Below, one piece after another: positions 13,021-61,642 of a stretch of 64,000 nt of DNA. The DNA is from Lentzea indica. Its GTDB lineage: Bacteria > Actinomycetota > Actinomycetes > Mycobacteriales > Pseudonocardiaceae. Below the pieces are notes generated by a model. That model ran no database searches, was not told the origin of the DNA, and saw only the letters and a list, made by a program, of their open reading frames with translations. The stretch spans positions 1 to 64,000 of the forward strand of contig NZ_VSRL01000021.1 in assembly GCF_012184385.1 (NCBI RefSeq), read 5' to 3'. The number at the start of each line of letters is the position of its first letter. Position 1 is the first letter of the stretch. The translations under genes were made by a program, and so were the position numbers.

Positions 13021-13029
13021 AAGCTCCGG

Positions 13030-14066: not shown

Positions 14067-14111
14067 GGGTGGCTGGCGCGCACGCTCGGCGTGTAGCCGA
14101 GCCGGCGGTGC

Positions 14112-14415
14112 CTACACGGGCAGAGGCCGCATCCTGTCGGGCATGTGCGCGCGCAGGATGTCTCGTAACGCGGACACCTCGTCAGCGTCCAGAAGGACGG
14201 ACCCGCGGGCACGCCAGGACCGCCTCGCCGGTGCGCTGGTCGGGTACGTACCGCAGTGCCACGTCCGGCACCGTGCACGACTCGGCCTGACGAATCGCAC
14301 TCAGCAGCTCCGACACCCGTTCGTACCCCAGCCGCGCGCTCCAGCGCAGCGCGGCCGGGGGACGAACGAACAACCGGAGGCCTCCGGCGGATCGGCGAAC
14401 CTCGACGCACGACAT
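14112..14415 (-). CDS. Small hypothetical protein, possibly frame-broken
   Basis: ATG at 14415 has a good GGAGG about 10 bases upstream and opens a frame of 77 residues (SCVEVRRSAGGLRLFVRPPA..., YVPDQRTGEAVLACP). It ends in a low-complexity tail at 14182. The neighbouring frame continues with natural-looking sequence (SVLLDADEVSALRDILRAHMPD) to a stop at 14112. A frame break near 14200-14210 would join them into about 100 residues. This break needs an extra base or two missing ones, unlike the other breaks in the window, so I am unsure. Family not recognised. Confidence 0.35.
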
Positions 14416-14498
14416 CACCGCTACTACCTCCTGCACTGGCTCACCAGCGAGACTAGCCAGAGATCGCGGTGGTCAGCGGCGGGTGTCACCCGTTCGGT

Positions 14499-15785: not shown

Positions 15786-15798
15786 GGGGATTCTCTCC

Positions 15799-20390: not shown

Positions 20391-21160
20391 GAAAGCCACC
20401 GCTTCCTGCGCTTGTAGTGCTTGACCGCACGGAACGAGGAGGTGCCGAGCCCGAGGTAGAACTCGCGGATGTCGTCGTCGGCGAGGAGCGCCGCGGCGGG
20501 CTTGTCCATGACGACCTTGCCGGTCTCCAGCACGTACCCGTGATCGGCGATGGACAGCGCCATGCTGGCGTTCTGCTCGACCAGCAGGACCGTGGTGCCC
20601 TGTTCGTTGATCTTCACGACGAGGTCGCGGATCTGCTGCACCAGCAGCGGCGCGAGCCCGAGGCTGGGCTCGTCGAGCAGCAGGTAGGCGGGTTCGGACA
20701 TGAGCGCCCTGCCGATCGAAAGCATCTGCTGCTCCCCGCCGGACAGGTAGCCGGCGCTCTGCCTTCGCCGTTCCGCGAGCTGCGGGAAGAGCTCGTAGCA
20801 CCGTTCGAGGTTGCTCTTGAGGCTCTTGGGGCGGGCGTGACCTCCGACCTTGAGGTTCTCGTCGACGGTCAGCTCGGCGAGGATTCTGCGGCCCTCCAGG
20901 GCCTGTTTGATGCCCCTGTCGGCGATTTTCGCTGGTGAAAGGCGGTGGATCGGTTCACCGTCGAGCGTGATCGAGCCCTTGGTGACCTTGCCGTCGTGCA
21001 CGTCGAGCAGGCCGCTGAACGCCCTCATCAGCGTTGTTTTCCCAGCTCCGTTGGCACCGAGCAGGGCGACGACCTTGCCTTTGGGCACCTTGAGGCTCAC
21101 GCCGCGGAGCACCAGCATCACGTCGTCGTAGACAACCTCAAGGTTGTTCGCCTCGAGCAC
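20387..21160 (-). CDS. ABC transporter ATP-binding protein, LivF-like; first gene of the operon
   Basis: 257 residues. Walker A GANGAGKT 35-42, signature LSGGEQQ 139-145, Walker B YLLLDEPSLGLAP 159-171 and H-loop VLLVEQNAS, where Gln-Asn replaces the His region exactly as in LivF proteins. A C-terminal extension (SSFRAVKHYKRRKRW) is basic. It is the promoter-proximal gene of the six-gene unit. The 200-base region upstream is shared with the divergent SRPBCC gene. Confidence 0.93.
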   Translation of the reverse strand: MLEANNLEVVYDDVMLVLRGVSLKVPKGKVVALLGANGAGKTTLMRAFSGLLDVHDGKVTKGSITLDGEPIHRLSPAKIADRGIKQALEGRRILAELTVDENLKVGGHARPKSLKSNLERCYELFPQLAERRRQSAGYLSGGEQQMLSIGRALMSEPAYLLLDEPSLGLAPLLVQQIRDLVVKINEQGTTVLLVEQNASMALSIADHGYVLETGKVVMDKPAAALLADDDIREFYLGLGTSSFRAVKHYKRRKRWLS

Positions 21161-21299
21161 CGGCGCCTCCTAGGGCCTGGAATGCCGATCAGTATGACGT
21201 GGATCACAACCATTTTGACTACTGTGCGCAATTTCGTGATGCGCATGTCGCGATTGGTTCAGCACTCTCCGTGTCCGTCCAGAGTGGACCGGACACGAT

Positions 21300-21324
21300 G
21301 TGTAACGAGCCGTGCCTTGGGTAC
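21300..21324 (+). promoter_or_regulatory. Candidate SigB/SigF-type promoter for the SRPBCC-sigma pair
   Basis: GGGTAC at 21319-21324 matches the -10 of SigB/SigF-class promoters (GTTT/GGTTT, N14-16, GGGTA). The -35 is weaker: GTGTA at 21300-21304, 14 bases upstream. The SRPBCC start is 36 bases further on. If real, the sigma gene at 21838 would be autoregulated. Confidence 0.4.
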
Positions 21325-21360
21325 TCACCTCGTGCAAGCAACTCAGTAGGAGGAGGTTTC

Positions 21361-21825
21361 GTGACCACCATTGAGAAGTCGGTGGACGTCCACGTGCCGG
21401 TGAGCACGGCTTACAACCAGTGGACTCAGTTCGAATCCTTCCCGGCGTTCATGGACGGCGTCGAGAAGATCGACCAGGTCACGCCGACCAGGACCCACTG
21501 GACCACGAAGATCGGCGGGGTCGTCCGCGAGTTCGACGCGGAGATCACCGAGCAGCACCCGGACGAGCGCGTCGCGTGGACCACGGTCGACGGGCCGCCG
21601 CAGGGTGGCGTGGTGACGTTCCACCGCCTCGACAACGACACGACTCGGGTGCATCTCCAGATGGAGTACGACCCCGAGACCATCACCGAGAAGGCGGGTG
21701 CCGCGCTCGGCGTGGTCGGCCACCGGGTCGAGGGCGACCTGAAGCGGTTCAAGGAGTTCATCGAGAACCGCGGCACCGAGACCGGTGCCTGGCGTGGCGA
21801 CGTCACGCCGCCGCCCCAGGTCTGA
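21361..21825 (+). CDS. SRPBCC family (polyketide cyclase/dehydrase-like) protein
   Basis: 154 residues. It starts TTIEKSVDVHVPVSTAYNQWTQFE, the usual beginning of the Polyketide_cyc2/SRPBCC fold, then PAFMDGVEKIDQV, WTTKIGGVVREFDAEITEQ and RVAWTTVDGPPQGGVVTFH. The last helix ends in DLKRFKEFIENR. GTG at 21361 has a strong GGAGGAGG. These proteins bind hydrophobic ligands; many actinobacterial copies are stress-induced. It lies 12 bases before the sigma gene and is probably co-transcribed with it. Confidence 0.85.
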   Translation: MTTIEKSVDVHVPVSTAYNQWTQFESFPAFMDGVEKIDQVTPTRTHWTTKIGGVVREFDAEITEQHPDERVAWTTVDGPPQGGVVTFHRLDNDTTRVHLQMEYDPETITEKAGAALGVVGHRVEGDLKRFKEFIENRGTETGAWRGDVTPPPQV

Positions 21826-21837
21826 TCGCGGTGCCCG

Positions 21838-22557
21838 TTGACGCCAGATCAACACGCGGCGTTCGAGGAACTCGCCCGCACCGCACGTGACTCGCCGCGC
21901 TACTACGCGCTGCGGGATCGGCTGGTGCGCGAATACCTCCCGCTCGCCCGGCACATCGCCCGCCGCTTCAGCGAACGCGGCGAGCCGATGGAAGACCTCG
22001 CGCAGGTGGCCGCGGTCGGACTGATCAACGCCATCGACCGGTACGACGTGAACCGGCAGACGGACTTCCTGTCCTATGCCGTGCCCACGATCACCGGGGA
22101 GGTGCGGCGGCACTTCCGCGACCAGTGCTGGGCGGTGCGCGTGCCGCGCAGGTTGAAAGAGCTGTGTGACTCCATCGACGGCGCGACCGCCGAGCTGTCG
22201 CACAAGACCGGGCGATCTCCCACTCCCTCCGAGATCGCCCGGCACCTGGGGGTGTCGATTTCCGACGTCTACGAGGGCCTGCGCGTGGAGAAGAACGTCG
22301 CGTTCGCGCCCTTGGACTCGCTGGAGGGCTCGACGGTCGACGACCCCGCCCTGGAAGGCGTGGAGATCCACGAGGCCCTGCAGCCGATGCTGCGGGGCCT
22401 TCCGCGGCGTGAACGGACCATCGTCGTCCTGCGGTTCTTCGGACGGCTGACCCAGACGGAGATCGCGCGTCGCGTCGGGATCTCCCAGATGCACGTGTCG
22501 CGCCTGCTCACCAAGTCGCTGGAGCAGCTGCGGCACGACCTGCTGGCGGAGGAGTGA
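21838..22557 (+). CDS. SigB/SigF/SigG-type RNA polymerase sigma factor
   Basis: 239 residues. Region 2 reads REYLPLARHIARRFSERGEP, MEDLAQVAAVGLINAIDRYD and FLSYAVPTITGEVRRHFRDQ, the general-stress sigma pattern; region 3 has HKTGRSPTPSEIARHLGVS; region 4 has RTIVVLRFFGRLTQTEIARRVGISQMHVSRLL. The only upstream start in frame is TTG at 21838, since a stop lies 15 bases before it. A TTG start suggests low translation. No anti-sigma kinase is adjacent, although a STAS antagonist-like gene lies at 25839. Confidence 0.92.
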   Translation: MTPDQHAAFEELARTARDSPRYYALRDRLVREYLPLARHIARRFSERGEPMEDLAQVAAVGLINAIDRYDVNRQTDFLSYAVPTITGEVRRHFRDQCWAVRVPRRLKELCDSIDGATAELSHKTGRSPTPSEIARHLGVSISDVYEGLRVEKNVAFAPLDSLEGSTVDDPALEGVEIHEALQPMLRGLPRRERTIVVLRFFGRLTQTEIARRVGISQMHVSRLLTKSLEQLRHDLLAEE

Positions 22558-22599
22558 AATGGGCGAGCGGGAATGTCGGGTTTTCGCGATACTGGCCGC

Positions 22600-23025
22600 A
22601 TGAACCGGTTGCGGTGGCCCCAGAAGCTGGCGATCAGCACCGGTGCCCTGCTCGCACTCTGGGGGGTGGCGGGGTTCTTCGTGACCGGCTTCTCCCCTTT
22701 TGCCGGCGAGTCCGACATGTGGTTGATCGGGCTGAGGGTGAACCCGTTGCAGAACACCATCCACGTCGTCCTCGGCGTCGCGTTGCTGCTGGCGGTTCCC
22801 CGCTTGAAGGCGTTGAGCGGAGTGGGGCTGCTGACGTCCATGCTGCTGCTGGTGACGTTCGGCCTGGGCACGGCCAGGTACGACGACCAGGTCGTGAACG
22901 TGCTGAACGTCAACCCCGGCAGCAACGCGCTGCACCTGCTGGCCGGGTTCGCCGCTCTGGCGGCGGCGCAGGGCGCCGTCTGGTGCCGGCAGTGTGATCG
23001 GGCGGCGGCGCTCAAGAGCGTGTGA
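22600..23025 (+). CDS. DUF4383 membrane protein
   Basis: 141 residues with four hydrophobic spans. Conserved DUF4383 features: LRVNPLQNTIHVVLGVALLLA, the GLGTARYDDQVVNVLNVNPGSNALHLLAGFAAL block and a Cys pair CRQC near the end. I chose ATG at 22600 (MNRLRWPQKLA); the frame also has an ATG at 22573. A GATACT sits 7 bases before 22600, which would fit a leaderless start. It follows the stress sigma factor and may belong to its regulon. Convergent with topoisomerase IB, overlapping by 14 bases. Confidence 0.82.
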   Translation: MNRLRWPQKLAISTGALLALWGVAGFFVTGFSPFAGESDMWLIGLRVNPLQNTIHVVLGVALLLAVPRLKALSGVGLLTSMLLLVTFGLGTARYDDQVVNVLNVNPGSNALHLLAGFAALAAAQGAVWCRQCDRAAALKSV

Positions 23026-23935
23026 GCAGCTTCCGCACCGCCCGTTCCGGATCGCCGTTGCCGATGACCTCGCCGCGTTCGAACGCTTCGACCAGGCGTG
23101 GGTCGACGTAGGACTTCCGCGCGACGGCCGCCGTGTTGCCCAGGTCTTCCGCCACCTCCCTCATCACCGCGCTGACCGCTCGTTTCGACGGTTTGCCTCG
23201 TTCCAGGAGGGCTCGCGCGAACGCCTGGGCTGCTCGCACCGTGGCGTGCCAGGTGCGGAGGTCCTTCACGCTGAACTCCTCGCCGACCAGTTCGCGGAAT
23301 CGATCGTTGATGTCGTCAGCGGTGAGGTCGAAGACGCGGCAGTCCGGGGGCTGGCCCTGGAGAAGTGACCGGACGGCGCGCGCGAGCATCGCGTCGATGA
23401 TCTCCTCGTCGACCTCGACGCCGTGCTTGGCGGGAAACCGGAACCTGACCCGGTCGCCGCGCACGCTGAGATGCTCACAAAGGAGCGTCGCCACGCCGTG
23501 GGTGCCGTTGTCCTCGGCGTACTCCTCGTGACCGACGCGGAAGACGCCCAGGTCGAGCATGCGCAGCGCGATGGCGAGCAGTCGCTTGCGGCCGCGTGAC
23601 CTCATGTCGTTCACGATCTGCTCGCGGAACTTCCGCAGGCGCTTGGCGAGCTTCAGCACGCGGTCGAACTTCTCGGCGTCGCGGTCGGTGCGCCACCGCT
23701 CGTGGTAGAGGTACTGGCGGCGGCCCGCGTCGTCGTAGCCGACCGCCTGAATGTGGCCGTTGGGGTGCGGACAGATCCAGACCTCGCGCCATGCAGGTGG
23801 GATGACCAGGGCTTTCACCCGCGCGATGTCGTCAGCCGCGAGCGGCCGGCCGTGGGCGTCCAGGTACCGGAAGCCCTTGCCGTGCTTCACGCGCGTCCAG
23901 CCGGGACCGGACGGAGCGCTGCGGCGGAGTCTCAT
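23012..23935 (-). CDS. DNA topoisomerase IB
   Basis: 307 residues, the bacterial/poxvirus-like type IB enzyme, which relaxes supercoils through a 3'-phosphotyrosine. The N-terminal part GFRYLDAHGRPL...VKALVIPPAWREVWICP is diagnostic. The catalytic domain holds RMLDLGVFRVGHEEYAEDNGTHGVATL (active-site Arg), SVKDLRTWHATVRAA and the nucleophile Tyr276 in ARKSYVDPR. Not essential in bacteria and often found beside stress genes. It is divergent from the carboxylate-amine ligase gene. Confidence 0.93.
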   Translation of the reverse strand: MRLRRSAPSGPGWTRVKHGKGFRYLDAHGRPLAADDIARVKALVIPPAWREVWICPHPNGHIQAVGYDDAGRRQYLYHERWRTDRDAEKFDRVLKLAKRLRKFREQIVNDMRSRGRKRLLAIALRMLDLGVFRVGHEEYAEDNGTHGVATLLCEHLSVRGDRVRFRFPAKHGVEVDEEIIDAMLARAVRSLLQGQPPDCRVFDLTADDINDRFRELVGEEFSVKDLRTWHATVRAAQAFARALLERGKPSKRAVSAVMREVAEDLGNTAAVARKSYVDPRLVEAFERGEVIGNGDPERAVRKLLTRS

Positions 23936-23948
23936 GTGGCCACCTCGT

Positions 23949-23974
23949 GGTTGATCAGTACGAAATGCGGGTAC
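23949..23974 (+). promoter_or_regulatory. SigF/SigB-type promoter before the carboxylate-amine ligase gene
   Basis: GGTTG at 23949-23953, 15 bases of spacer, then GGGTAC at 23969-23974 fits the actinobacterial SigF/SigB consensus (GGTTT, N15-17, GGGTA) with one mismatch. The start codon at 23985 is 10 bases beyond, giving a very short or absent leader. The sigma factor at 21838 is of this class. Confidence 0.55.
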
Positions 23975-23984
23975 CCGCTCGCCG

Positions 23985-25051
23985 ATGAACCACTACACGG
24001 TCGGTGTGGAACAGGAGTTCCTCCTCGTTGACCCCGAGTCGCGGCGGCCGGTAGCACTGGCGCCCCGAGTCCGGGAACTCTCCCGCGCCACCGGTGACCT
24101 CGACGTGCAGGGCGAGTTCACGCCGTTCCAGATCGAGATCGCCACCGGGATCACGCACAGCTTCGAAGAGCTGAACGAGCAGGTGCGGTGCTCCCGGCGG
24201 GTGCTGGCCGAGGCGCCGACGAGGCCGGGTGCCGGCTGGTGGCGACCGGCATGCCGCCGATCGGCAAGGCCGGTCCCCCACCCGGAACGGATGAGCCGAG
24301 ATATCACCAGATCGAGTACTCCCACCGAAGACTCGTCCTCGGGCAGGGCGCTTGCGGGCTGCACGTCCACGTGGGCGTCGAGGACAAGGCAGAGGCGCTG
24401 CGGGCGTCGAACAAGCTGCGGGTGTGGTTGCCGACGTTGCTGGCGCTGAGCGCGAACTCCCCGATCTACGGGGGAGAGGACACCGGATATTCGAGCTGGC
24501 GGTCGATGGTGTGGTCGCGCTGGCCGGTGAGCGGACCGCCGCCGTTGTGGGACGGCCCCGAGCACTACGACCGCACCGTCGAGGCGATCATCGCTACCCA
24601 GGCGTTGCTGGACAGGGCGATGGTGTACTGGGACGTGCGGCCGTCTGCGGATCATCCGACGGTTGAGGTGCGCGTGGCGGACATTCCGCAACTGGCAACG
24701 GAAGCAATCGTTCTCGCGGAACTCGTCCGTGCGATCGTCGCGTCCGAACCCTCCGAACAGAGGGTGGACGATCCCGTGCTGCGAGCGGCATATTGGCGGG
24801 CGTCGCGCGACGGGGTCGACGGACTGGCCGCCGATCCACACACCGGAAAACTCTCCCCCGCGTTCGACCGAGCAGAAGACCTGGTTGAGCACGTCGCGGT
24901 CGCGCTGCGCGATCGCGGCACTCTGTCTACTGTGGAGCGCCAGATGGACTGGTTGCGCCACAACGGCAGCGGTGCGGCCCGGCAACGACGCTGCCCGGAC
25001 CCCGAGTCCCTTGTGGACGAGCTGATCGCCCGAACGCGTGAGGAAACCTGA
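23985..25051 (+). CDS. Carboxylate-amine ligase, YbdK/EgtA (glutamate-cysteine ligase 2) family, one frame break
   Basis: An ATP-dependent ligase that would join glutamate or a similar acid to an amine. The N-terminus has the GCS2 signature VGVEQEFLLVDPESRRPV and FTPFQIEIATGI; the second part has RYHQI, CGLHVHVGVEDKAEAL, the SANSPIYGGEDTGYSSWRS block and VEVRVADIPQL. The two parts lie in different frames, changing at about 24212-24218, where GAGGCGCCGAC stands for an expected GAGGCGGCCGAC (Ala-Ala-Asp). One missing base repairs the gene to about 355 residues, a normal length. Probably a sequence error. Its TGA overlaps the next ATG by one base. Confidence 0.85.
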
Positions 25052-37200: not shown

Positions 37201-37541
37201 CGCTGGACGCGTTCCTGCGGTCGCTCGGCGACTACGAGGTGGACAACTGCGTCGGCACGCTGCTCGACGTCAGCGGGTCCGCTCACGCGGACGTCGTGGT
37301 ACAGAAGGTCAGGGAGTCGAACCTCAGTGTGTGGCAGCGGATGAACATCGCGGACCTGTTCATCAACGACGGCCTGCTCGACCACGCCGTGATGCTGTGG
37401 CTGGACGTCGTGCGGCACCACGACCTGGAGATCGCAAAGGGAGTGGAGGCGGCGGCCAAGTTGGTGCAGGTCGGTCAGCGTGCCCAGGCGATCGAAGCGG
37501 CCGCCGGCCACAGAGCGCTGCTGGCCTGGCTCCAGGCCTAA
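34296..37541 (+). CDS. NACHT-type STAND NTPase with short N-terminal effector-associated motif
   Basis: 1081 residues. Residues 2-30 (EVQGSTVHGHVVQAQEIGEL and the HGN that follows) fit the short Gly/Val/Gln motif (G..hG.vvQA..I) at the front of many actinobacterial conflict NTPases. Walker A GEPGAGKST is at 111-119, Walker B WLVFVDGLDEI at 192-202, sensor VITTRP near 228. After the winged-helix part (NPLLATIAAIAN, LFVHSDAGLKFLHHSFAEFLAARV), about 600 residues of helical repeats probably act as sensor. No TIR, nuclease or protease is fused. Related bacterial NACHT proteins can protect against phage; that role is inferred. It ends 4 bases inside the convergent CHAT gene. Confidence 0.85.
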   Translation: MHNEVQGSTVHGHVVQAQEIGELHLHGNEVPHPPLTSWQDRPALTEELEDLLHVQRDAAETLPYRLLGVRQPELTRVYVQQSVRETERKQGDRPFPIGEALSRGKHLLITGEPGAGKSTLGQMYVQRLATEWLEASADPPLPEPVMPLRIPAKALADDLPWSELLANAVRSSRLNSTLKPELFAKRALGARWLVFVDGLDEIAEPERRDRVIDALVSRMRRGSDHRLVITTRPLPPDELQKLHGQDIDLFTIQPFGPVELQDFASAWFRAQNPTNSKDRAAEFVSQVHDGRLRELVRNPLLATIAAIANTLEPHRKLPHNRADLYERFMSYLLDDKASGRNTLAELRKAHADDPARVEQIEWLYERRKDLVEQLAVKRLESERALLDIAATWDHEAQPEDVLAVLTSTGLFVHSDAGLKFLHHSFAEFLAARVRAATIPADFPNLDEWVELGTQQARETSVLFTFVLWGRKPGHDLDLVIEPLLEGGVEHALLAGRLLAEDVSITSARAAEVVDRLVKLLLANGVREIPWDDAREIGRVLAGLDNDAIAHLLIPKLRGLRDNGDLPDVVRIGCTVALGHLESPENAATWLQEYADVRRSHALAAIATGLAEILPNGADLAEELLLRLAKTTDSYSLVIAVIDTLRFDIERREPARRLLRDLVRRLKTDEAARPGSPHVPHFGALSDTTPFSWDTLCVHAIELECPDEATWLAERILTQSSVDIDEWATAVGVLLRHGSESSLDGVITRARSLTPEHVLIVAEHSLVDHRVTVELARSVVTRPTADDDQFVRACQLMVLFEPKEVHKLVADRRSLDLNDLIRLADITSLQDLSQVGKLLQRVEVAQVDGEQRSAELMAGMLRLGFDGDRLHTEVVNGLPVQRATAAAALFKTGHTTQAEHLVGTLLTEPLDAMSAVICLDRMIAKKVPREAQRLYDHLRVVVGQHDPAVARRFAPILHRVGQPEKAAEVALDAFLRSLGDYEVDNCVGTLLDVSGSAHADVVVQKVRESNLSVWQRMNIADLFINDGLLDHAVMLWLDVVRHHDLEIAKGVEAAAKLVQVGQRAQAIEAAAGHRALLAWLQA

Positions 37542-40131
37542 CCGGCCCCGAAGCAGACAAAGCCAACGGCAGCGGCGTAAGCAGCGTCATCGGCAGCGGC
37601 CCGCTGCACAGCGGCGAGAGCCTCGGCGGGCGCCATCCCCGCTGCCAGCTTCTGGTGCAGCTCCACCATCACCGGAGCCGTGCCGTCGGTCGGCACCGGC
37701 ACAACAGGCGCGATCAAGGTACGAGTACCGAGCCCGAGAAGCGCCGCCGTGAAGCCCATCAACTCATCACCGGGCCGGACAGCGGACTGACCGGTGTCGC
37801 ACGCCGACAGCACCACGACGGTCGGCGGGGTGCGCAGACGTTCGATGTCGTAGACGGTCAGCGGCCCGTCGGCCAACTCCAGAGCCGAGAAGAGCGGGTT
37901 GTCGACGCGGAACGACCCGTGCGCGGCGATGTGGGCAAGCGCAGCACCGTCCATTGCGGACGCAACGGCGCTCACCGTCGCTTCCGAGTCAACGAGAACG
38001 CGGCCGGGCACGTGCGAGCTGATCGCCTTGATCTCCGCGGGCGCGGCGGCCATCCGGGGTCCGGCGGCCAGCACCGCCTCCCCCGAGGCATCGGCAACCG
38101 AACAAGCCCGCAACCACACCGAGGCCGAGGGCGCGACGGTCACCTGGCAGTTCAGCACCGACCACGGCAGGCCGTTCAACGCGCCCGTCGGCACCACGAC
38201 CAGCGGCCGGCCGTCGATCCGCGAAGCCAGCGGCGCCAGCAGTCGTTGAGCCAGCAGCGAAGCGGCGTGTGCGGCCGAAGACCGCGCCACGGCGAGGTTC
38301 GGCAGGTGCGGCGGCAACGTCACGAGACGGTGCAAGGCGAAGCGCAGGAGCCGGATCTCGCGGACCACACCCTCCACGGCGCCCAAAGAATGCAGAGAAG
38401 CGCGACCACCCGCCAGTACGACGGCCATCAGCACACCGTCGTACTCGACGAACTCGATCAGCGCCGACGAGCCCAAAGCCGCGGCCAGCGACCCGACCGG
38501 CGGTGGCTTGAACACCGAGACCTCACCGGACACCTGCCGGGTGAGGTCGCGGACGCGCTGCTCGGCACGGATCAGCTGCACGCGCAGGGCACCGGCGGGT
38601 TTTCCCGCCAGCACAGCGGATTCCACGTCCGCTGCCACCGCGCGCAACGACGCCAGAGCGTCCTCCAGCCGAGGGTCGTCAGGTGGCGACACGGACTTCA
38701 TCCGCAGCGCCCCGGCCCGCCAGCTCTCGGTCCACGACAACACGCGCGCGGCGTTGCCCGAGGCCACGGCGAGCCGCAAACCCTCCAGCGCCAAGGCCTG
38801 GCCCTGCACACCGGTCGACGCCCGCAGTTCGGCCGCCCCCAGCGACACCCGGTACTCGTCCAGCAGCCCGATACCGCGACGAAGAGCGGACGAAGTCCCA
38901 CGAACATCGCCGGAAAGCTTGCGGCGCAACGCTTCCGCGTACCAGCCACGCACTCGCAGCCCGGCAGGGCCCCGAAAACGCGAAGCAGCGGCGACAGACA
39001 ACTCGGCAACGGCACGGGCGCGATGACCGAGATCGGCGGCGACCAGGCCGGCGTCGATCCTGGCTTCCAGTGCGGGCAGCCGCCAGTCCATCGCGTCCAG
39101 CTCAGAAGCAACCCGCGACAACGCCAGTCGCAACGGCCGGGTGCGGTCACCGCGCAGCACGGCTGCGTGCAGCTCCAGATACCGCGCACCGGCAGCCCAC
39201 AGCAGGCGTTGCTCGCGGCGGAACCGGCGACGCGCCTCGGCCGCGAAGCCATGGGCGGCATCGGGATCGTCGTCCAGCAGGGCGATGCGCGCCCGGAAGT
39301 ACAGGGCCTCCGAGACGCCCAGCGGGTTCTTCAACGCCTTCAGCTCGGTGATCGCCCTGTCGGCCGCGGCGCGCGCCTCGTCCAGCAGCGGCACCGAGAC
39401 GAGCAGCTCCAGCCTGTTCACCAGCAGCACCGGGCGCATCACGTCGAGCCGCCGGTACACCTCTTCCGCCTTGTCGAACAAGGTCAGCGCGGCAGGGACG
39501 TCGCCGCCGCGGGTGGCCATGATGCCGGCGTTCCAGTGCACGTCGGCGACACCGAGCTCCTGGCCGAGCTCCCCGAGCAACGAGGCCGCCAGCTCGAAGT
39601 CCGCCGACGCCTCACGCATGTTCCCCACGTACGCGCGCACGAGGCCCCGGTTGTTCAGGGCGCGCGCTCGACGAGCTGGTCGCCGACGCGGCGCGCACCG
39701 GCAATGGCCGCCGTGTAGTCGCGCTGCGCGTCGTCGTACCTCGTCAAATAGTGGAAGACGACGCCGCGTTGCATCAGCGCGGCCACCGCGTCGGCGCCGG
39801 TCAGCTCCGGCATCGCGTCGTCGAGCGCCTTCAACGCCTGCTTCTGCTTGCCCGTGTAGGCGAGCACCCACGCCAGACTCATCTGCGCCAAAGCGGACAA
39901 ACGCGGCAGCGAAGCGTCGGAGGCGATCCTGATCGAGCGGCGCAGATGCCGGGCCGCTCCGCTGAAGTCGTGCATCTCGCGCAACGCGAGACCGATCGCG
40001 CGCTCGGCGATCGACCATTCCGCTCGATCTTCCGTCGTGCGGAGGACGGCGCGGGCCATCTCGACGGCCTCGCGCGGGTTGCGCTGCCTGGCCTCCAGCG
40101 CGTCCTCCGCACAAAAGTCGGTCACGGGCAT
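37538..40131 (-). CDS. TPR-CHAT caspase-like protease, one frame break
   Basis: About 864 residues once one frame break is repaired. The N-terminal 450 residues are TPR-like helices (DRAEWSIAERAIGLALREM, ARHLRRSIRIASDAS, QRDYTAAIAGARRVGDQ, LNNRGLVRAYVGNM). The CHAT domain has ALAHIAAHGSF (His about 738) and VVVLSACDTGQ (Cys about 778), both catalytic residues of a caspase-like protease. The TPR frame stops at 39655; GAGCGCGCGCCCTGAAC reads on if one base is missing near 39658-39668 (ERA then LNNRG). ATG at 40131. No signal peptide, so it acts in the cytoplasm. Divergent from the subtilase-sigma operon. Confidence 0.85.
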
Positions 40132-40149
40132 CACTTTATCCGCTGTGGT

Positions 40150-40163
40150 AGCTTGATCAAGCT
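40150..40163. promoter_or_regulatory. Perfect 14-bp palindrome in the CHAT/S8 divergent promoter
   Basis: AGCTTGATCAAGCT reads the same on both strands. It lies 18 bases before the CHAT start and 37 before the S8 start, in a 69-base region that must carry both promoters. A dimeric regulator site controlling both transcripts is likely; it could also overlap a -10 (TAGCTT at 40149-40154). No matching regulator gene is adjacent except the sigma factor and the XRE protein. Confidence 0.55.
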
Positions 40164-40200
40164 CGGTCGGGGTGCCCGTCAACGCTGCTTTAGTGAGGCC

Positions 40201-41401
40201 GTGGTGTCGAAGTCGCCAGAAAGCGCAGAGCTTTACCAAAGAGCTTTTCTGCAGCTCATCGCCGAGGACAAGAACATCAGCTTCCACGCCGAACGAGGGC
40301 GTGAATTCCTTTATCGACCCGGCCAGCTGGTCGTCGGCATCGACGACCAAGAACGCGTGATCGCAAAGCTGCGTGAAAACAACATCGTCGCCCGGCCCGT
40401 CGACGGATTCGCCGGATTGGCTCGACTGATCCTGCCGAACAACGCGGAGGACGTTCCGCGGATTGTCCGCCTGTTGCGCGACCAGCGGAACTGGCCGAAC
40501 CAGCGAGTGCCGCTCGTGCAGCCGCACCACGTGATCGTCGGCCACGGCGGCCTCGTCATGGGCAACCCCGGCGACCGGCCGTACCCCACCGACCCGGTCT
40601 CCGTCCCCAAGTCGGACGAGCGCCTCAAGAACGTCAGGGTCGGCATCATCGACACCGGCATCTCCTCCGGCGCCGACAGCGAGCACTCCGACTGGTTCGC
40701 CGGCCGCTACGACAAGGAGACGGACGACGTCGACCCCGCCTACAGCAGCGGCCACATGTTCGCGTTGCAGGGCGGGCACGGCACGTTCGTCGCCGGCGTG
40801 ATCCAGAACGCGGCGCCCGGCGTCACGTTCGACCCGGAGGTCGCACTCGACCAGAACGGGTTCGGTGACGAAGAAGGGCTCTGCCGCAAGATCTCGGAGC
40901 TGGGCCAGAAGAAGATCAACCTGCTCAACCTGTCGCTGGGCTGCTTCACCGAGGACGACGTGGCCTCAGAACCGCTGCGGCGCGCGATCGACGAGCTGCC
41001 GGCGGACGTCGTCGTGGTGGGTTCTGCGGGCAACCAGGGCACGCAGCGGCCGAGCTGGCCTGCCGCGCTGTGCAGGGTCACCGCCGTCGCCGCCGCCGAG
41101 CAGAACCGGGACGGCTCCGTGGGGCCCGCGTCGTACTCGAACTGGGGTCATTGGGTGGACGCGTGCGCGATCGGCAACCGGGCGTCGACCTACCTCAAGG
41201 GTGAGTGGCAGCTGCCGGGCGAACCGCCGCGACGCCGTTCGCGCTGTGGGCGTACTGGTACGGCACGTCGTTCGCCGCGCCCTGGTCACCGGCCGGATCG
41301 CCGCCACGATGGTGGCGGACGGCATCAGCGCAGCTCAGGCACGTGACAAACTGTTGAGCGGGCCGGAGTTCCATCCCGGCTACGGTGTTTTCGTCAAATA
41401 G
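40201..41401 (+). CDS. Intracellular S8 (subtilisin-like) serine protease, two frame breaks
   Basis: About 400 residues when repaired. An N-terminal domain of about 140 residues has no signal peptide, so the enzyme is cytoplasmic. Catalytic residues by hand count: Asp151 in VGIIDTGI, His193 in GGHGTFVAG, Asn278 in VGSAGNQG, Ser357 in YGTSFAAP, all present. Two one-base gaps interrupt the frame: at about 41224-41231 (GAACCGCCGCGACG, one base short before GCG ACG CCG) and 41275-41283 (GCCGCGCCCTGG, one C short). With both restored the protein runs to GYGVFVK at 41401. GTG at 40201 follows TGAGG. It is 54 bases upstream of the sigma gene and on the same strand. Confidence 0.83.
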
Positions 41402-41455
41402 TTGTATCTGGGGAGCAACCTCGGCCTCCGCAAGTTGTGACCGCAAGGAGTCGAC

Positions 41456-42073
41456 GTGACCTCTGGATCCCCGATCGCCGCGCTCGTGAGCGCGGCGGCC
41501 GAGGGCGACCAGTCGGCGTGGAACGAGATCGTGGACCGTTACACGCCGCTGGTGGTGTCGGTGATCTACAAGCACCGGCTGCGCCCAGCGGATGCGTCCG
41601 ACGTGAACCAGACGCTGTGGCTTCGGCTCGTGGAGCAGATCGGAAGGCTGCGCGAGCCGGAGGCGTTGCCCGGCTGGATCATGACGACCACCCGGAACGA
41701 GTGTCTGCGCGTGCTGCGCGTGCAGCAGCGGACGCACCTCTACGACCCGTTGTCCGAGTCCGACGCGCTGGAGTCGGAGCAGACGGACGCGGACGTGGAG
41801 TCGGACCTGCTGGCCGTGGAGCGGCGCCAGGCGCTGCGGGACGGGTTCGCCGAGCTCACGGACCAGTGCAAGCGGTTGCTGACGAAGCTGATGACCGATC
41901 CGCCGCCGAGCTACCAGATCGTGAGCGAAGAGCTCGCGATGCCGGTAGGCAGCATCGGCCCGACGCGGATCCGTTGCCTCGAGAAGTTGCGCAAGACCCC
42001 TGCGATCGCAGCATTCCTGGGATCGCCGGTGCAGAGAGGAGGTGTGCTGGGTGCGGCACGACTGGGACAGTGA
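41456..42073 (+). CDS. Sigma-70 family (ECF-like) RNA polymerase sigma factor
   Basis: 205 residues. Region 2: DQSAWNEIVDRYTPLVVSVIYKHRL, DASDVNQTLWLRLVEQIGRLREPEALPGWIMTTTRNECLRVLR. Region 4 is present but divergent: LTDQCKRLLTKLMTDPPPSYQIVSEELAMPVGSIGPTRIRCLEKLRK. This subgroup is common in actinobacteria beside CHAT and S8 genes. GTG at 41456 has AAGGAG five bases upstream. Its last 23 bases overlap the start of the next gene, whose ribosome site lies inside it, so the two proteins are made together. No classical zinc anti-sigma factor is adjacent. Confidence 0.88.
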   Translation: MTSGSPIAALVSAAAEGDQSAWNEIVDRYTPLVVSVIYKHRLRPADASDVNQTLWLRLVEQIGRLREPEALPGWIMTTTRNECLRVLRVQQRTHLYDPLSESDALESEQTDADVESDLLAVERRQALRDGFAELTDQCKRLLTKLMTDPPPSYQIVSEELAMPVGSIGPTRIRCLEKLRKTPAIAAFLGSPVQRGGVLGAARLGQ

Positions 42074-42494
42074 CGAAGTACTGCTCGATGCCTTGCGGGA
42101 CGCGTTGAGCACACCTTCGGAGGAGGTTCCGCCGGAGTTCGTCGAGGCCGCGAAGGCCGCGTTCACCTGGCGGAACATCGACGAGGAGCTGCTGCTGATC
42201 ACGTCGTACGACTCCGTGCTGGACGACACGCTGTTCGCCCGTGCGCGGTCGACGGCGACGGCGCGGCAGCTCGTGTTCGACGCGGACGGCGTGATGCTGC
42301 AGGTGGAGGTGTCGGCGGCGGGGATCACCGGTCAGCTGATGCCGGCGTCCGGGTCGGTCACGCTGGTGACGCCGAACGGCGACCACGAAACCGCGCCCGT
42401 CGACGAACTGGGGACGTTCGTGATGGGGGTAGCACCGCGAGGACCGGTGAAGTTCCGGTTCGCAAACGGGTGCACCGATTGGTTTATCCTCTGA
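42051..42494 (+). CDS. Small acidic protein with carboxypeptidase-regulatory/beta-sandwich-like C-terminus, sigma-linked
   Basis: 147 residues. The N-terminal half is acidic and helical (DSDEVLLDALRDALSTPSEEVPPEFVEAAKAAFTWRNIDEELLLI). The C-terminal half is beta-rich: ARQLVFDADGVMLQVEVSAAGITGQLMPA, GSVTLVTPNGDHETAPVDELGTFVMGVAPRGPVKFRF, like a carboxypeptidase regulatory or CnaB-type sandwich. No membrane span. GTG at 42051 has GGAGG eight bases upstream within the sigma gene. The coupling suggests a partner or inhibitor of the sigma factor, possibly a target of the S8 or CHAT protease; that is inference. Confidence 0.72.
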   Translation: MRHDWDSDEVLLDALRDALSTPSEEVPPEFVEAAKAAFTWRNIDEELLLITSYDSVLDDTLFARARSTATARQLVFDADGVMLQVEVSAAGITGQLMPASGSVTLVTPNGDHETAPVDELGTFVMGVAPRGPVKFRFANGCTDWFIL

Positions 42495-42596
42495 CTCACC
42501 ATTCGAGTGACAGTGGAATTCATTCGTTCGGCCCACATCTGCGGCCAGTAGGGTTGTCGACGCTCAGAATTCACATCGCGAGAGGTGTGTGCTGCT

Positions 42597-43397
42597 GTGG
42601 TCGATCGAGTCAGCTGGGTCCCGGAAGGTGTCAACGTCGACGTCCCGAGTTCCGCCAGGATCTACGACTACCTCCTCGGCGGCGGGCACAACTTCGAAGC
42701 GGACCGCGAGACGGCTGAGGCCCTGATCAAGGTGCTGCCGGTGCGGGACATGGCGCGGCGCAACCGCGCCTATCTGCGCCGTGTCGTCCTGGAACTGGCT
42801 GGCCTCGGCATCCGGCAGTTCCTTGACCTCGGTTCGGGCATCCCGACCGTCGGCAACGTGCACGAGGTGGCGCACGAGGTCGCACCCGAGTCGAAGATCG
42901 TGTACGTCGACTTCGAGCCGGTCGCGATCACGCACGCCGAGCTGATGCTGGCCGGCGAGCCGAACGTGACGGCGTTGCTGGGCGACCTGCGCGAGCCGGA
43001 GAAGGTGGTGGCTCAGGCTCGGGAACTGCTCGACTTCTCGCAGCCGATCGGCCTTCTGGTCGTGGGTGTCCTGCAGTTCATCCCGGACTCCGACGACCCC
43101 TGGGGCGTGTTGTCCCGTTACGTGGAATCGCTCTCGTCCGGTTCGTACCTGGCGCTGTCGCACTTCACCGCGGACAGCATGCCGGCGGCCATGGCGGCCG
43201 GTAAGGAGATCTTCGCCAAGACCGCCGAGCCGATCACGCCGCGCACCAAGGCTCAGGTCGCGGACATGCTGGCGGGCCTGGAGGTCGTGGAGCCCGGCAT
43301 CGTGTTCACGCCCGAGTGGCGGCCGGAGACGCCGGAGGACGTCGGCTCGGATCCGTCGAAGGCCAACCTCTACGCCGCGGTGGGCCGCAAACTCTGA
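42597..43397 (+). CDS. DUF574 (Methyltransf_19) SAM-dependent methyltransferase
   Basis: About 266 residues. The N-terminal SSARIYDYLLGGGHNFEADRETAE is diagnostic for DUF574, followed by NRAYLRRVVLELAGLGIRQFLDLGSGIPTVGNVHEVA (SAM site) and VYVDFEPVAITHAELML. LLVVGVLQFIPDSDDPWGVL comes later. GTG at 42597 with GAGAGG nine bases before; GTG at 42585 is possible. In actinobacteria this gene is often followed by a PAS/GGDEF/EAL gene, and its TGA overlaps such a gene here. Substrate unknown. Confidence 0.9.
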   Translation: MVDRVSWVPEGVNVDVPSSARIYDYLLGGGHNFEADRETAEALIKVLPVRDMARRNRAYLRRVVLELAGLGIRQFLDLGSGIPTVGNVHEVAHEVAPESKIVYVDFEPVAITHAELMLAGEPNVTALLGDLREPEKVVAQARELLDFSQPIGLLVVGVLQFIPDSDDPWGVLSRYVESLSSGSYLALSHFTADSMPAAMAAGKEIFAKTAEPITPRTKAQVADMLAGLEVVEPGIVFTPEWRPETPEDVGSDPSKANLYAAVGRKL

Positions 43398-43873
43398 TGG
43401 CCACTTCGCCCTTCGCGAAGCGCTGGGCGGCTGTTCTGATCGAGAGCGCGTACTCGCCGATGTCGCGGCGAAGGCTGACGCAGCATCTCGAGGAACATGC
43501 CGTCCGGCTGCGTGCTGGGCGGACCAGTGTCGATGGGGGTGCACCCGCCGTCGGCGAATGGCTGGTGCGCAACCACTTCACCGGGCCCGACTCGTTGCGG
43601 CGCACGCTGGAGGTGCTGTCCGGTGAGTTCCCAGCCGAGGTGCTCGGCGGGCTGGCGGCCGGGTACGTGCGGGCGACGCGCGACCAGCTGTTCGCCGAGC
43701 AGGAGAAGGTCAAGAACGCCCTGCTGAAGGCAGTCGAGGACGCCCAGCGCGACCTGCACGACAGCGAGGCGCGCTTCGCCCAGGTCTTCGCGTCGACGGC
43801 GATGGGCATCGCGATCTTCGACGTGCACGGCACGGTCGTGGAGGCGAACGAGGCCCTGGCCACCATCCTGGGT
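43397..43873 (+). pseudogene. 5' fragment of a PAS/c-di-GMP-type signalling protein
   Basis: Only about 159 codons remain. The reading begins FAKRWAAVLIESAYSPMSRRRL, has GEWLVRNHFTGPDSLRRTLEVL, a helical linker LFAEQEKVKNALLKAVEDAQRDLHDSEARF and the beginning of a PAS domain (FDVHGTVVEANEALATILG). This is the usual N-terminus of actinobacterial PAS-GGDEF-EAL proteins, which are over 600 residues. After about 43873 the same frame reads antisense to the GH92 gene and the family likeness ends at once. No GGDEF or EAL motif exists anywhere nearby. Confidence 0.8.
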
Positions 43874-43886
43874 CCGCACGTCCCGC
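43862..43886. other. Junction joining two truncated convergent genes
   Basis: Left of about 43874 the plus strand encodes a PAS domain; right of it the minus strand encodes GH92 up to IEARDVR. Both genes lose their 3' parts at the same point. This is either one deletion that removed both 3' ends or a wrong assembly join. No direct repeat, target duplication or IS end was seen at the point. Confidence 0.7.
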
Positions 43887-46831
43887 GCCTCGATCATCTC
43901 GTGGATCACGCCGCCGTAGCCGCCGGGGAACTTGGCCGTCTCCGGCAACGTGAAGAACTGGTCGAGCTTGGAAGCCAGCTTGTCCCGCCCGCCGTACAGG
44001 TTCGCGAGGCCCTGTCCGTCGTGCGGCACCGTGAACGCCATGTTCCAGCCGTTCGTCTCGGTGTAGTCGTAGCGCCAGTCCTGCGGGTTGTACTTCGCCG
44101 GGTCCTCGACGCGCCACGAGCCGTCGACGTTGCGGCCCTGGAAGAAGTCGATCCGCTTGTCGAACGTCAGCACGTAGTTCTGGGCTCGGTTGAGGAAGTA
44201 CTCGTACTCCTCGGCGTACCGCTTCTCGCCCGTCTTCTCGTGCAGCGCCTTCGCCATCGACGCGATGCCGAAGTCGTTCAGGTAGCCCTCGATCGCCCAC
44301 GACCACGCCTCGTGGAGCTGGTCGTTGCCGGTCCAGCCGAGGAAGATCGACCGGTCCATGCCCTTGCGGCCGACGTTGTTGCTCGGCGGCACCACCGAAG
44401 CGTTCTTCACCGCGGCGTCGTAGGCGGCCTTGATGTCGAAGTTGCTGACACCCTTCAGATAAGCGTCCGCGAACGCCACGTCGGAGCTCGTGCCCGTCAT
44501 CAGGTCCGCGTAACCGGGGGAGGACCAACGCGAGATCCAGCCGCCGTCCTTGTACTGCTGGACGAAGCCCTCGGCCATCTCGCCCGCCTTGGACGGGGTG
44601 AAGAGGCTGTAGGCGGGCCAGGTCGTGCGGTAGGTGTCCCAGAACCCGTTGTTGACGTAGATCTTGCCGTCCACGATCTTGGCGCCCGTGCGGGTCGGCG
44701 AGTTCTCACCGACGAGCGGCGCCACCGGGGACGCGTACTGGATCTTGTCGCCGACCTTCTCGTAGCCCGAGTTCGGGTAGAGGTAGAGCCGGTACATGTT
44801 GGAGTACAGCGTGATCAGCTGCTCTTCAGACGCACCCTCGACGGTGAGGATGCCGAGCACCTTGTCCCACGCGGCCTGCGCACGGTCGCGCACGGCCTCG
44901 AAGGTGTCCGAGCCGCTGATCTCCTGGTCCAGGTTCGCGCGAGCCTGATCGACCGAGATCAACGAGGTGGCGATCCGCAGCTGGACCGTCTTGTCCGCGA
45001 ACGAGAAGTAGCCGCCGACCGCGTCACGACCGGCGCCCGTCAGGCGACCGCTGCCCGTGACGGCCTTGTCGACCTTGCCGTAGACGAACAGGCGCGTCGC
45101 ACCCGTCGACAGGCCGCTCTTCACGTCCGAGAAGCCCGTGACGACACCGTTTTCCGCGTCCAGGGTGAGACCACCCAGGTTGCTGACGTTGTCGAACACC
45201 AGGTTCTTCTGGCCCTCGTCGGTGAACGTGAACCGGAACATCGCCGCGTGGTCGGACGGCGCGATCTCGGTCTTCATGCCGTTCTCGAAGGTCACGCCGT
45301 AGTAGTGCGCCTTCGCGATCTCGTTGTCGTGCTTGAACGGCAGCGACCGCAGCGCGCGGTCCTGCGTCGGAGCCTTGTCCGACGGCATGACCTGGAACGT
45401 CTGGCGGTCACCCATCCACGGGCTGGGTTCGTGGGACGCGGTGAACGCCTGCAGCGTCGGCAGGTTCTGCGCGTTGTTGCGCTGCTGGTACTCGTAGAGC
45501 CACGAGATCGAGCCCGCGTTGGTCATCGGGGACCAGAAGTTGAAGCCGTGCGGCACCGCGGTCGCCGGGAAGTTGTTGCCCCGCGAGAACGAGCCGTTCG
45601 AGTTGGTGCCGCGTGTGGTCAGCACGTAGTCAGAGGGCTTCGCGTACTGCTTCCTGACGACATCGCCGATCTTGATGTCGTCGAACCAGGCACCGAACTC
45701 CGTGGGGCCCTTGGGGCCGTCGTAGGCGACCAGGATCCGCTTGATCGTCTTGCCGGCCGCGACCCCGCCGATCGTGGACGCCACCTTGTTCCACTGGTTG
45801 GAGTACAGGAACTTGCCCGCGCCCTGGCCCTGCGGCGACAGCACAGCGCCGTGCTGGTCCACCGCCTTGAGGTCGCTCAGGTACGTGCCGTCGGAGAACG
45901 CGAGGTCCACCGACGAGTACGTGCTCGGGTAGTTCAGGTTGTCGGTCACGAAGTCCGGGAAGATCATGTACGACAGCTCGGTCTGCGGCTCGACCTTGAC
46001 GTCGACGTCGAAGACCTTGTTGTAGCTGTAGGCGCGACCTTCGGTGGTGTGCTTGCCCTGGGTCCGGAACGCCTTCACGCCCGTCCAGCCGACGCGCGAC
46101 TTGGACGTGTAGCCGCCCGTGGGGCCGTTGCCGACGATGCTGCGCATGTTCGGCGACGGCGGGTTCGTGGAGCCGTCGGAAAGCTGCACCTCGGCGAGCT
46201 GCACGATGTTCGAGGAGCCGTTGTTCAGCGTGATGTCGAGCTTGTACCAGGTGAACGACTGCGGCGCCGCGATGTCGTAGAGCTTGGTCTGGAAGCGCTC
46301 GGCGAACGTCTCGCCGGTGCGGGTGTCGAGCACGGTCCAGTCGGTGCCGTCGTTCGAGCCCTGCAGCGTCCAGTTCTTGGGGTCGCGCCCCGGCTCGTCG
46401 TTGGCGGAGGACAGCGCGTACTTCCTGATGGTCTGGGCGCCGTGCTTGGTGAAGTCGAACTTCGCCCAGCCGGTGGTGGCGAAGACCAGCCACTTGGTGT
46501 TGACGCTGCCGTCGGTGAGGTTCGTCGCGTACTCGCCGGCTTCCGCGTACTCACCGTTGGCCGTCACCGTCGCATGTTCGGCGACGTTGCCGGGGATGCC
46601 CGTGCCGTCCGAGCCGATCACGCCCGCCGACTTCGGGTTGCCCGCCGCGTCGGTCTCGACGGTGCTCACCCATGATGGTTGCGGTTGACCGTCCTCAAAG
46701 GACGACGAAAAGCCCACGCCTTGCTCCTCTGGTGCGGCGGCCGCAAGGCCGTTGGTGACGCCGCACACCAGTGTCGCAGTGATCGCAACGCTCAACAGAG
46801 TTCTGGTTCGTCTCTTCCCCAGTTGCCTCAT
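43874..46831 (-). pseudogene. GH92 alpha-1,2-mannosidase-like, secreted, missing its C-terminal part
   Basis: About 985 residues remain. ATG at 46831 after GGAAGGG starts a signal peptide (RTRTLLSVAITATLVCGVTN). Residues about 60-190 form an F5/8-type (CBM32) module (NLTDGSVNTKWLVF, WTLQGSNDGTDWTVLDTRTG, YKLDITLN). The GH92 part is clear: HGFNFWSPMTNAG, LYSNMYRLYLYPN, VNNGFWDTYRTTWPAYSLFTP, SWAIEGYLNDFGIA, GGYGGVIHEMIEARDVR. A normal GH92 goes on for a few hundred residues, including a GDEDNG-MSAW-type block with catalytic acids, absent here. So the protein ends at the junction and is predicted inactive. Confidence 0.85.
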
Positions 46832-46970
46832 TGCAACCCTTCCGCCGCCTTGCCTGCCCCGTTCGCGAGGGAGCGTTTCGGCACGTGACATCGTTGTCAA
46901 GAGATCAGGCGGAAACTGTCTTCGAACCTGTCCTCTCCACGGTCGCGGGCACGGAACACCGGTCAAGATC

Positions 46971-46985
46971 TAGACTCGATCGGTG
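46971..46985 (+). promoter_or_regulatory. TAGACT -10 box for a near-leaderless ROK transcript
   Basis: TAGACT at 46971-46976 is six bases before the GTG at 46983, and no ribosome site precedes the GTG. This spacing suggests leaderless translation. No good -35 was found. The argS gene has the same TAGACT box (52044-52049) with eight bases to its GTG. Confidence 0.4.
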
Positions 46986-48152
46986 ACCGACCGCAAGCCG
47001 CCAGAGGTGGGCACACCAGCGGGCATGCGCGTGCTCAACCAACGCGCTGTGCTGGACCGGTTGCGCCGTCTGGGTGCCGCCACCCGGCCTCAGATCGCGA
47101 AGGACACCGGGCTGTCCAAGCCGACGGTCGGGCAGGCGCTGGTGGATCTCGAACGCCACGGCCTCGTGCGCCCGATCGGCCGCACCACAGCGGGACCCGG
47201 CCGTTCCGCGGTGGTCTACGAGCCGAATCCGGCCGCGGGGTACGTGCTGGGCGTCGACATCGGGCGGGAACGGATCCGGGCGGCTGTGGCCGATCTGGGC
47301 GGGTCCGTGGTCGCGCGCGTGGACGAGCGCAACCGCAGCCGGTCGGCTGCCGCTCTGGTGCGCACGGTGACGGAGCTGGCTTCCCGGACCGTGGCCGACG
47401 CGGGGATCGCGTTGGCGGACGTCGTGGTGAAGGTGATCGGCAGCCCCGGCGTGATCGATCAACGCTCGCGCGTCGTGCGGCACGCGCCCAACCTGCCGGG
47501 CTGGGAGTCCGCCGGGGTGCTGGACGGGCTGGAGTCGTCGCTCGGGCCCGTGGTGCTTGTGGAGAACGACGCCAACCTGGCTGCGCTGGGGGAACACGTC
47601 TACGGCGCGGCTCAGGACGTTCGTGTGTTCGTGTGCGCGACGGTCGGCACTGGCGTCGGCATGGGCATCGTGGTCGACGGCGTGCTGTTCCGCGGTGCGC
47701 ACGGGGCTGCGGGCGAGGTCGGCTTCCTGCCGTTCGGCAAGTCCGCTTCGGACGTCCAACGTGGACAGTTCGAGGAGGCTGCGGCGGCGGAATCCGTTGT
47801 GGCACTGGCTCGTGAGCGCGGACTGTCGGCGCGCTCGGCTCGTGAGGTGTTCACGGCCGCGCGTTCCGGTGACGCTCAGGCACTCGAGGTCGTGCGGGTG
47901 GAGGCGGAACGGCTCGCGTTCCTCGTGGCCTCGGTGTCCGCGGTGATCGACCCGGAGCTGGTCGTGCTGGGCGGCGGCGTCGGGTCGAACGTGGACCTGC
48001 TGCTGTCCCCTTTGGAGGCCGCGCTGCGCACGATGACGCCGCTGGCGCCCCGGATCGTGGCGGGTTCGCTGGGTGACGGCGCGGTGCTCTCCGGAGCACT
48101 CGCGATGGGCCTGGAGGCGGCCCGTCAAGTGGTCTTCGAAGTTACTCTCTGA
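46983..48152 (+). CDS. ROK family transcriptional regulator
   Basis: 389 residues. Winged HTH first: LNQRAVLDRLRRLGAATRPQIAKDTGLSKPTVGQALVDLERHGLV. The ROK sugar-kinase-like domain follows: YVLGVDIGRERIRAAVADLGG, VVLVENDANLAALGEHVYG, VCATVGTGVGMGIVVDG, and AHGAAGEVGFLPFG. The usual ROK zinc motif (CxCGxxGCxE) is absent, replaced by an acidic stretch, so the zinc site is lost. Divergent from the GH92 gene with 151 bases between, so it likely represses the glycosidase in response to a sugar. Confidence 0.9.
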   Translation: MTDRKPPEVGTPAGMRVLNQRAVLDRLRRLGAATRPQIAKDTGLSKPTVGQALVDLERHGLVRPIGRTTAGPGRSAVVYEPNPAAGYVLGVDIGRERIRAAVADLGGSVVARVDERNRSRSAAALVRTVTELASRTVADAGIALADVVVKVIGSPGVIDQRSRVVRHAPNLPGWESAGVLDGLESSLGPVVLVENDANLAALGEHVYGAAQDVRVFVCATVGTGVGMGIVVDGVLFRGAHGAAGEVGFLPFGKSASDVQRGQFEEAAAAESVVALARERGLSARSAREVFTAARSGDAQALEVVRVEAERLAFLVASVSAVIDPELVVLGGGVGSNVDLLLSPLEAALRTMTPLAPRIVAGSLGDGAVLSGALAMGLEAARQVVFEVTL

Positions 48153-60665: not shown

Positions 60666-61015
60666 TGGTTCACTCGAATGCCGAGGTGCGGTTGGCGCGT
60701 CGGTTGGGTGGGTCGTCTCCCTGTTGGGTTGGCGGGTGCCGGTTTCGTGTCCGTAGGTGGTTGGGTTGCGTTGGTTAGCTGGCGGTTGCTTGCGTTTCTG
60801 GGGCTCCGCCCCAGACCCCGCCAATCTGATCAAAGACCTGTCCAGCGCCGCGCGCGGGTTGATGGCACGCCTGTTGCTTTTGGCGGCTTGCGGCTGCGTA
60901 GGTGGTGCTGTTGTTGGTGACGGGACCACCCCACCAGATGGGTGTGTGAAGGGCGGGCTCGGCTGCGCCTTCGCGGGGGCTCGGCTTCGCCTTTGCCGTT
61001 GTGTGAAACTGCTGG
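60666..61015. repeat. Non-coding spacer with GC-rich repeats
   Basis: 350 bases with no supported gene. It holds TCTGGGGC-TCC-GCCCCAGA, an 8-bp stem hairpin at 60797-60815, and two near-identical 17-mers, GGGCTCGGCTGCGCCTT (60955-60971) and GGGCTCGGCTTCGCCTT (60977-60993). Such GGGGCTCCGCCCC and CTCGGCTTCGCC units resemble the short repeats scattered in genomes of this family. Possible frames here are not supported. Confidence 0.6.
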
Positions 61016-61378: not shown

Positions 61379-61642
61379 CGGCCGTTCGGCGGTGCAGAAC
61401 ACGGCACACAGTCTGATGGACAGCCACCAACAACACGGAGCCGTATGTGGTCGAACGGCGTCACCTTGCGCCGAACGGCCTATCACAGAGGTTGAGCGGT
61501 TGTGACTTCAGCCACGCCGAGGCGTCGGGAACAACCGCGTTTTTGCACGTGTTGAAGGGTCTGGCAAACTAAACGGTCGAGTCCGGCTCCGGTTCACCCA
61601 TCATCGAGGGACCCGGCGGCCATCCTTGAAAGGGACAAGATC

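What the first reader, a model, noticed from the sequence alone, without database searches (positions are those of the whole stretch)
43862..43886. Tail-to-tail junction that truncates a PAS/c-di-GMP gene and a GH92 mannosidase at one point
Both genes lose their 3' parts at about 43874: one lacks the GGDEF/EAL part, the other its catalytic C-terminal block. A single point joining two convergent fragments means either one deletion removed both ends or two contigs were wrongly joined.
Basis: seen in the sequence. Interest (0 to 1): 0.6.

Follow-up and report, generated by a model that had tools for sequence, protein, structure and literature searches.

The report
Assembly misjoin splitting two intact genes
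The point where two genes seem to be cut off together is very probably an error in joining short DNA reads of a soil bacterium's draft genome: the missing halves sit at the ends of two other contigs and both genes are whole in related species, so it is ordinary.

Summary
The window is bases 1-64000 of contig C133 in a 634-contig draft whose relatives are Lentzea. C133 changes locus at 43873/43874, with two shared bases (TC). The missing GGDEF/EAL part is at the end of contig C49, the missing GH92 C-terminus at the start of C369. Each overlaps C133 by exactly 99 identical bases, one up to the junction, one from it, as expected of a de Bruijn branch at k=99. Of 6 ends of three other contigs, 2 show the same 99-base overlap. 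Read across the contigs both genes are whole, 615 and 1411 aa. Among 23 same-genus genomes GH92 is full length in 23, the PAS gene (nearly) full length in 19. Of 26 relative loci tested none crosses the C133 junction; 13 of 13 and 13 of 13 cross the true joins. In one complete relative the halves lie 931 kb apart with both genes on one strand, which excludes a simple deletion. No reciprocal junction was seen.

The parts
43873..43874 (.). False junction: the two bases (TC) common to both parent loci
   Evidence: 99-base exact overlaps with C49 and C369 meet here and share these two bases; 0 of 26 relative loci tested align across it
43776..43971 (.). 196-bp stretch, equal to 2 x 99 minus 2, the length expected for a chimeric edge between two branch k-mers at k=99
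   Evidence: Left 99 bases = end of C49, right 99 bases = start of C369; the graph reading is inference
43397..43874 (+). N-terminal part (start into the PAS domain) of a 615-aa PAS-GGDEF-EAL protein; the rest is on contig C49 (C49:22266 down to about 20897)
   Evidence: Open frame continues into C49; Pfam PAS, GGDEF, EAL on the joined protein
43873..46831 (-). N-terminal two thirds of a 1411-aa GH92 glycosidase (GH92N and part of the GH92 catalytic domain; a possible F5/8-type domain just below Pfam's cut-off); the rest is on contig C369 (bases 100-1373)
   Evidence: Open frame continues into C369; Pfam
42585..43397 (+). S-adenosyl methyltransferase (Methyltransf_19) just upstream of the PAS gene, part of the left-hand locus
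   Evidence: Pfam E 1e-84; within the block 37542-43872 that maps to G002 near 5.04 Mb
46983..48152 (+). ROK-family protein with N-terminal HTH, next to GH92 in the right-hand part of the contig
   Evidence: Pfam ROK E 1.2e-47; G002 has no match of 200 bases or more to it at this place

Best explanation
A misassembly. In the real chromosome the left part of the contig (ending at 43874) continues into contig C49, and the right part (from 43873) is preceded by contig C369. In a de Bruijn-type graph with k=99 both true paths and a false connecting path were present; the assembler followed the false path and left C49 and C369 as separate contigs that each keep the 99-base branch k-mer. The false path most likely came from a chimeric library molecule or read joining the two loci at a 2-base match. 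Shown: where the halves are, the exact 99-base overlaps, open frames across the contigs, whole genes in relatives, and colinear flanks in one complete relative. Inferred: the assembler type, its k, and the chimeric molecule as source of the false path.
For: Missing halves on C49 and C369, each overlapping C133 by exactly 99 identical bases up to or from the breakpoint. Reading across the contigs gives a 615-aa PAS-GGDEF-EAL protein and a 1411-aa GH92 protein. Among 23 same-genus genomes GH92 is full length in 23 and the PAS gene full or nearly full length in 19. The C133-C49 join aligns unbroken in 13 of 13 PAS loci tested and the C369-C133 join in 13 of 13 GH92 loci tested, the C133 junction in 0 of these 26; also 8 of 8 against 0 of 8 in the named Lentzea GH92 loci (some of these are the same genomes as). 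In the complete relative G002, window 9430-43872 (8 blocks) and C49 lie on one line from 5.083 down to 5.016 Mb; C369 and window 43873-63988 (4 blocks) on one line from 4.106 up to 4.128 Mb. The same 99-base overlap of a contig end with another contig's interior occurs at 2 of 6 ends of three other contigs (C408 with C63, C411 with C601). Within 300 bases of the breakpoints the parents share no more than chance: longest common word 10 bases direct and 10 inverted, against mean 9.69 and maximum 12 in 200 shuffles.
Against: No read data were available, so depth and spanning pairs are unchecked. The junction was strong enough to survive assembly, which one stray chimeric read often is not. The overlaps show that the normal joins exist in the data; they do not by themselves show that the C133 junction is absent from every cell. 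Four of 23 same-genus genomes lack a close PAS gene copy. A survey of 55 readable contig ends against about 1% of the genome found no further 99-base overlap.
Confidence: 0.95

Rival explanations
1. A real inversion of about 0.9 Mb, fixed or in part of the culture, with breakpoints inside the two genes; the assembly mixes both arrangements.
For: In G002 the loci lie 931 kb apart with the genes on one strand, so an inversion would give exactly this convergent join. The normal joins (as 99-base overlaps) and the C133 junction are both represented in the assembly.
Against: No reciprocal junction (C49 side to C369 side) among the matches listed for C49's last 2 kb and the whole of C369 (40 of 546 and 40 of 356 first-look candidates were scored). 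No common word above chance length at the breakpoints. 0 of 26 relative loci tested carry the junction. Limit: the readable data leave out short contigs (all those under 3 kb that I fetched read as N), so a short contig with the reciprocal junction would be invisible.
Confidence: 0.03
2. One deletion removed both 3' ends.
For: Two truncated genes meet at one point.
Against: The missing ends, with sequence downstream of them, are on C49 and C369 of the same assembly. With both genes on one strand, as in G002, a deletion would join them in the same direction, not convergently.
Confidence: 0.005
3. The assembly mixes two very close strains, one with the C133 arrangement and one with the normal arrangement.
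For: Would also leave both the junction and the normal joins in the data.
Against: Contamination is given as 0.7. The overlaps stop exactly at 99 bases on both sides. Searches with window 1-20000 and 24001-64000 list no near-identical second copy of the flanks (each scored 40 of 876-986 candidates; 20001-24000 mostly not searched).
Confidence: 0.015

Closest known systems
Chimeric connection (relocation/inversion misassembly) in short-read de Bruijn assemblies
   Same: Joins two distant loci at one base, gives truncated genes there, leaves the true continuations as contigs with an overlap of fixed length. PMC6736328 (six passages seen) describes chimeric reads as concatenations of distant regions that cause incorrect junctions in contigs.
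   Different: Nothing notable; assembler and k are inferred from the overlaps, not documented here.
Intact Lentzea orthologues of the two genes
   Same: GH92 full length in 23 of 23 and PAS-GGDEF-EAL full or nearly full length in 19 of 23 same-genus genomes; 8 of 8 named Lentzea GH92 loci cross the breakpoint unbroken
   Different: Only contig C133 shows them cut.

Membership tests
Short-read assembly misjoin | Missing continuations present elsewhere in the same assembly | tested here: met
   C49 and C369
Short-read assembly misjoin | Overlap of one fixed length at the branch, recurring elsewhere in the assembly | tested here: met
   99 and 99 bases here; 99 bases also at 2 of 6 ends of three other contigs. 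A separate comparison of the 55 readable of 106 contig ends with about 1% of the genome found only the two overlaps of this case.
Short-read assembly misjoin | Junction absent from relatives, true joins present | tested here: met
   0 of 26 against 13 of 13 and 13 of 13 loci tested
Short-read assembly misjoin | Low or discordant read support across the junction | not testable with these tools
   No reads available
Deletion | Removed DNA absent from the genome | tested here: not met
   Both halves and sequence beyond them present
Deletion | Joined loci keep their relative orientation | tested here: not met
   Same strand in G002, convergent in C133 (one complete relative only)
Inversion | Reciprocal junction present | tested here: inconclusive
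   None listed, but short contigs could not be read here
Inversion | Inverted repeats at the breakpoints | tested here: not met
   Longest common word within 300 bases 10 in either orientation, as in shuffles (mean 9.69, max 12). Recombinase sites as such were not searched for.

The most novel reading that the evidence does not exclude
A fraction of the cultured cells carries a genuine inversion of about 0.9 Mb between the PAS-GGDEF-EAL gene and the GH92 gene, inactivating both, with the reciprocal junction hidden in short contigs not readable here.
Probability: 0.03. Interest if true: 0.3.

Novelty: not a real feature. Interest (0 to 1): 0.04.

Why it matters
It does not matter biologically. 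Practically, the GH92 and c-di-GMP genes of this strain should not be called pseudogenes on this evidence, contig C133 should be split at 43873/43874, and other contigs of this draft may hold similar misjoins.

Tried and rejected
Deletion: rejected, the halves are present and the orientation is wrong. Inversion through repeats: no common word above chance at the breakpoints and no reciprocal junction listed.

A survey of contig ends for 99-base overlaps told little: 55 of 106 ends could be read, the others being N, and only about 1% of the genome was in hand; it found no overlap besides the two of this case. Searching three whole short contigs against the genome instead gave 2 of 6 ends with 99-base overlaps (where identity ends was rechecked base by base for C408/C63, not for C411/C601). 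Whether those two are also misjoins was not tested. One end of the third contig (C409) is a dispersed repeat, so that end is uninformative.

Papers: two searches (listings with the starts of abstracts only); of PMC6736328 I saw six passages. The two further ids I tried are not held. That contig ends overlapping by k are typical of such assemblers is recalled, not taken from a paper read here.

Full report
Observation. The window is bases 1-64000 of contig C133 in a draft genome of 9.97 Mb and 634 contigs (C133 is 68,224 bp). At 43873/43874 the + strand PAS gene and the - strand GH92 gene both stop being themselves. The PAS protein as read in the window matches only PAS_8 positions 1-38 of 65, and GH92 only positions 1-316 of 464 of its catalytic domain; beyond the point both frames stay open by chance.

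The missing halves. A search of the same genome with 1,201 bases around the junction gave, besides the contig itself, two exact 99-base matches and three weak ones at 65-68% identity. The exact ones are the end of C49 (22,365 bp) and the start of C369 (4,175 bp). The C49 overlap covers window 43776-43874 and the C369 overlap 43873-43971; identity ends exactly there, and they share two bases, TC. Continuing from C133 into C49 gives one open frame for a 615-aa protein with PAS, GGDEF and EAL domains; continuing from C133 into C369 gives a 1411-aa GH92 protein. C369 carries profile positions 304-464 of the GH92 domain.

Relatives. each searched 40 genomes: the own genome, 23 of the same genus and 16 of other genera. 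GH92 is full length in 23 of 23 same-genus genomes (query 1-1411, in one 5-1411) at 77-94% identity without internal stops. Of the 16 others two have a match at E <= 0.001 (one at 58% over residues 14-1302, with three internal stops; one over residues 1266-1408 only). For the PAS gene 19 of 23 same-genus genomes have a full or nearly full-length copy at 67-90% identity (in G002 from residue 31); the best matches of the other four (G003, G008, G013, G018) are paralogues near 40%.

At DNA level I tested 12 of the 18 other-than-G002 PAS loci and 12 of the 22 other-than-G002 GH92 loci (those returned as loci), plus both loci of G002. The C133-C49 join aligns without break in 13 of 13 and the C369-C133 join in 13 of 13; the C133 junction aligns across in none of these 26 (one fetched G002 piece begins about 60 bases past the PAS breakpoint, so there the span is just met, and one search shows the longer colinearity). 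In the 8 Lentzea loci among the 80 the C369-C133 join is unbroken in 8 of 8 and the C133 junction in 0 of 8; some of these are the same genomes as.

Geometry. In G002, a single-contig genome of 9,997,872 bp, window 9430-43872 maps in eight blocks from 5,082,885 down to 5,040,060, and C49 continues that line from 5,040,156 down to 5,015,670, with some extra matches among paralogous stretches. C369 bases 3-2878 map to 4,108,948-4,106,081, and window 43873-63988 continues in four blocks from 4,108,852 up to 4,128,095 (matches of 200 bases or more). The two loci are thus 931 kb apart, and C133 joins them in opposite directions. A deletion cannot do this; an inversion could, but should leave a reciprocal junction between the C49 and C369 sides. 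Searches with the last 2 kb of C49 and the whole of C369 list only C133 at those ends (40 first-look candidates scored in each). All contigs under 3 kb that I fetched read as N, so this is strong but not complete.

Signature of the assembler. Exact overlaps of one fixed length at contig ends are what a de Bruijn assembler leaves at graph branches (recalled). The 196 bp from 43776 to 43971 equal 2 x 99 minus the two shared bases, as expected for an edge created by a chimeric read (inference). The same 99-base overlap between a contig end and another contig's interior occurs for C408 with C63 and C411 with C601, 2 of 6 ends of three contigs tested. The rnaSPAdes paper says that chimeric reads concatenating distant regions trigger incorrect junctions in contigs (PMC6736328, passages). 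The two parent sequences share nothing beyond chance near the breakpoints, so recombination through homology is not suggested.

Verdict. The junction is a misassembly (0.95). Both genes are very probably intact in the organism.

Noticed in passing
window 60682-61004: A dispersed repeat: parts of it match more than 30 places in the same genome, the stronger ones at about 76-99% identity; at least 14 of these begin within 220 bases of a contig's first base, so it is probably one cause of the breaks in this draft. It includes GGGGCTCCGCCCCAGACCCC. G002 does not align here; no Rfam family at gathering score.
   Followed up: partly
contigs C408/C63 and C411/C601 of the same genome (L152, L173, L150): A contig end overlaps the interior of another contig by 99 bases, as at the C133 junction; these may mark further misjoins in this draft.
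   Followed up: partly
window 1-9430: No alignment of 200 bases or more to the 100 kb of G002 fetched around the left-hand locus, although 9430-43872 is mostly colinear there; strain-specific DNA, a rearrangement or another join.
   Followed up: no
window 46934-48130: The ROK-family gene next to GH92 has no counterpart of 200 bases or more at this place in G002, where the flanking blocks are only about 86 bases apart.
   Followed up: no
window 61583-61621: Actinobacterial L31 ribosomal protein leader (Rfam RF03158, 44.5 bits), the only Rfam hit at gathering score in the window.
   Followed up: no
window 37538-41346: TPR plus CHAT-domain protein on the - strand (37538-40114) beside a + strand ORF (39751-41346) whose later part reads by eye like a subtilisin-type serine protease; a pairing that might be worth a look.
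   Followed up: no
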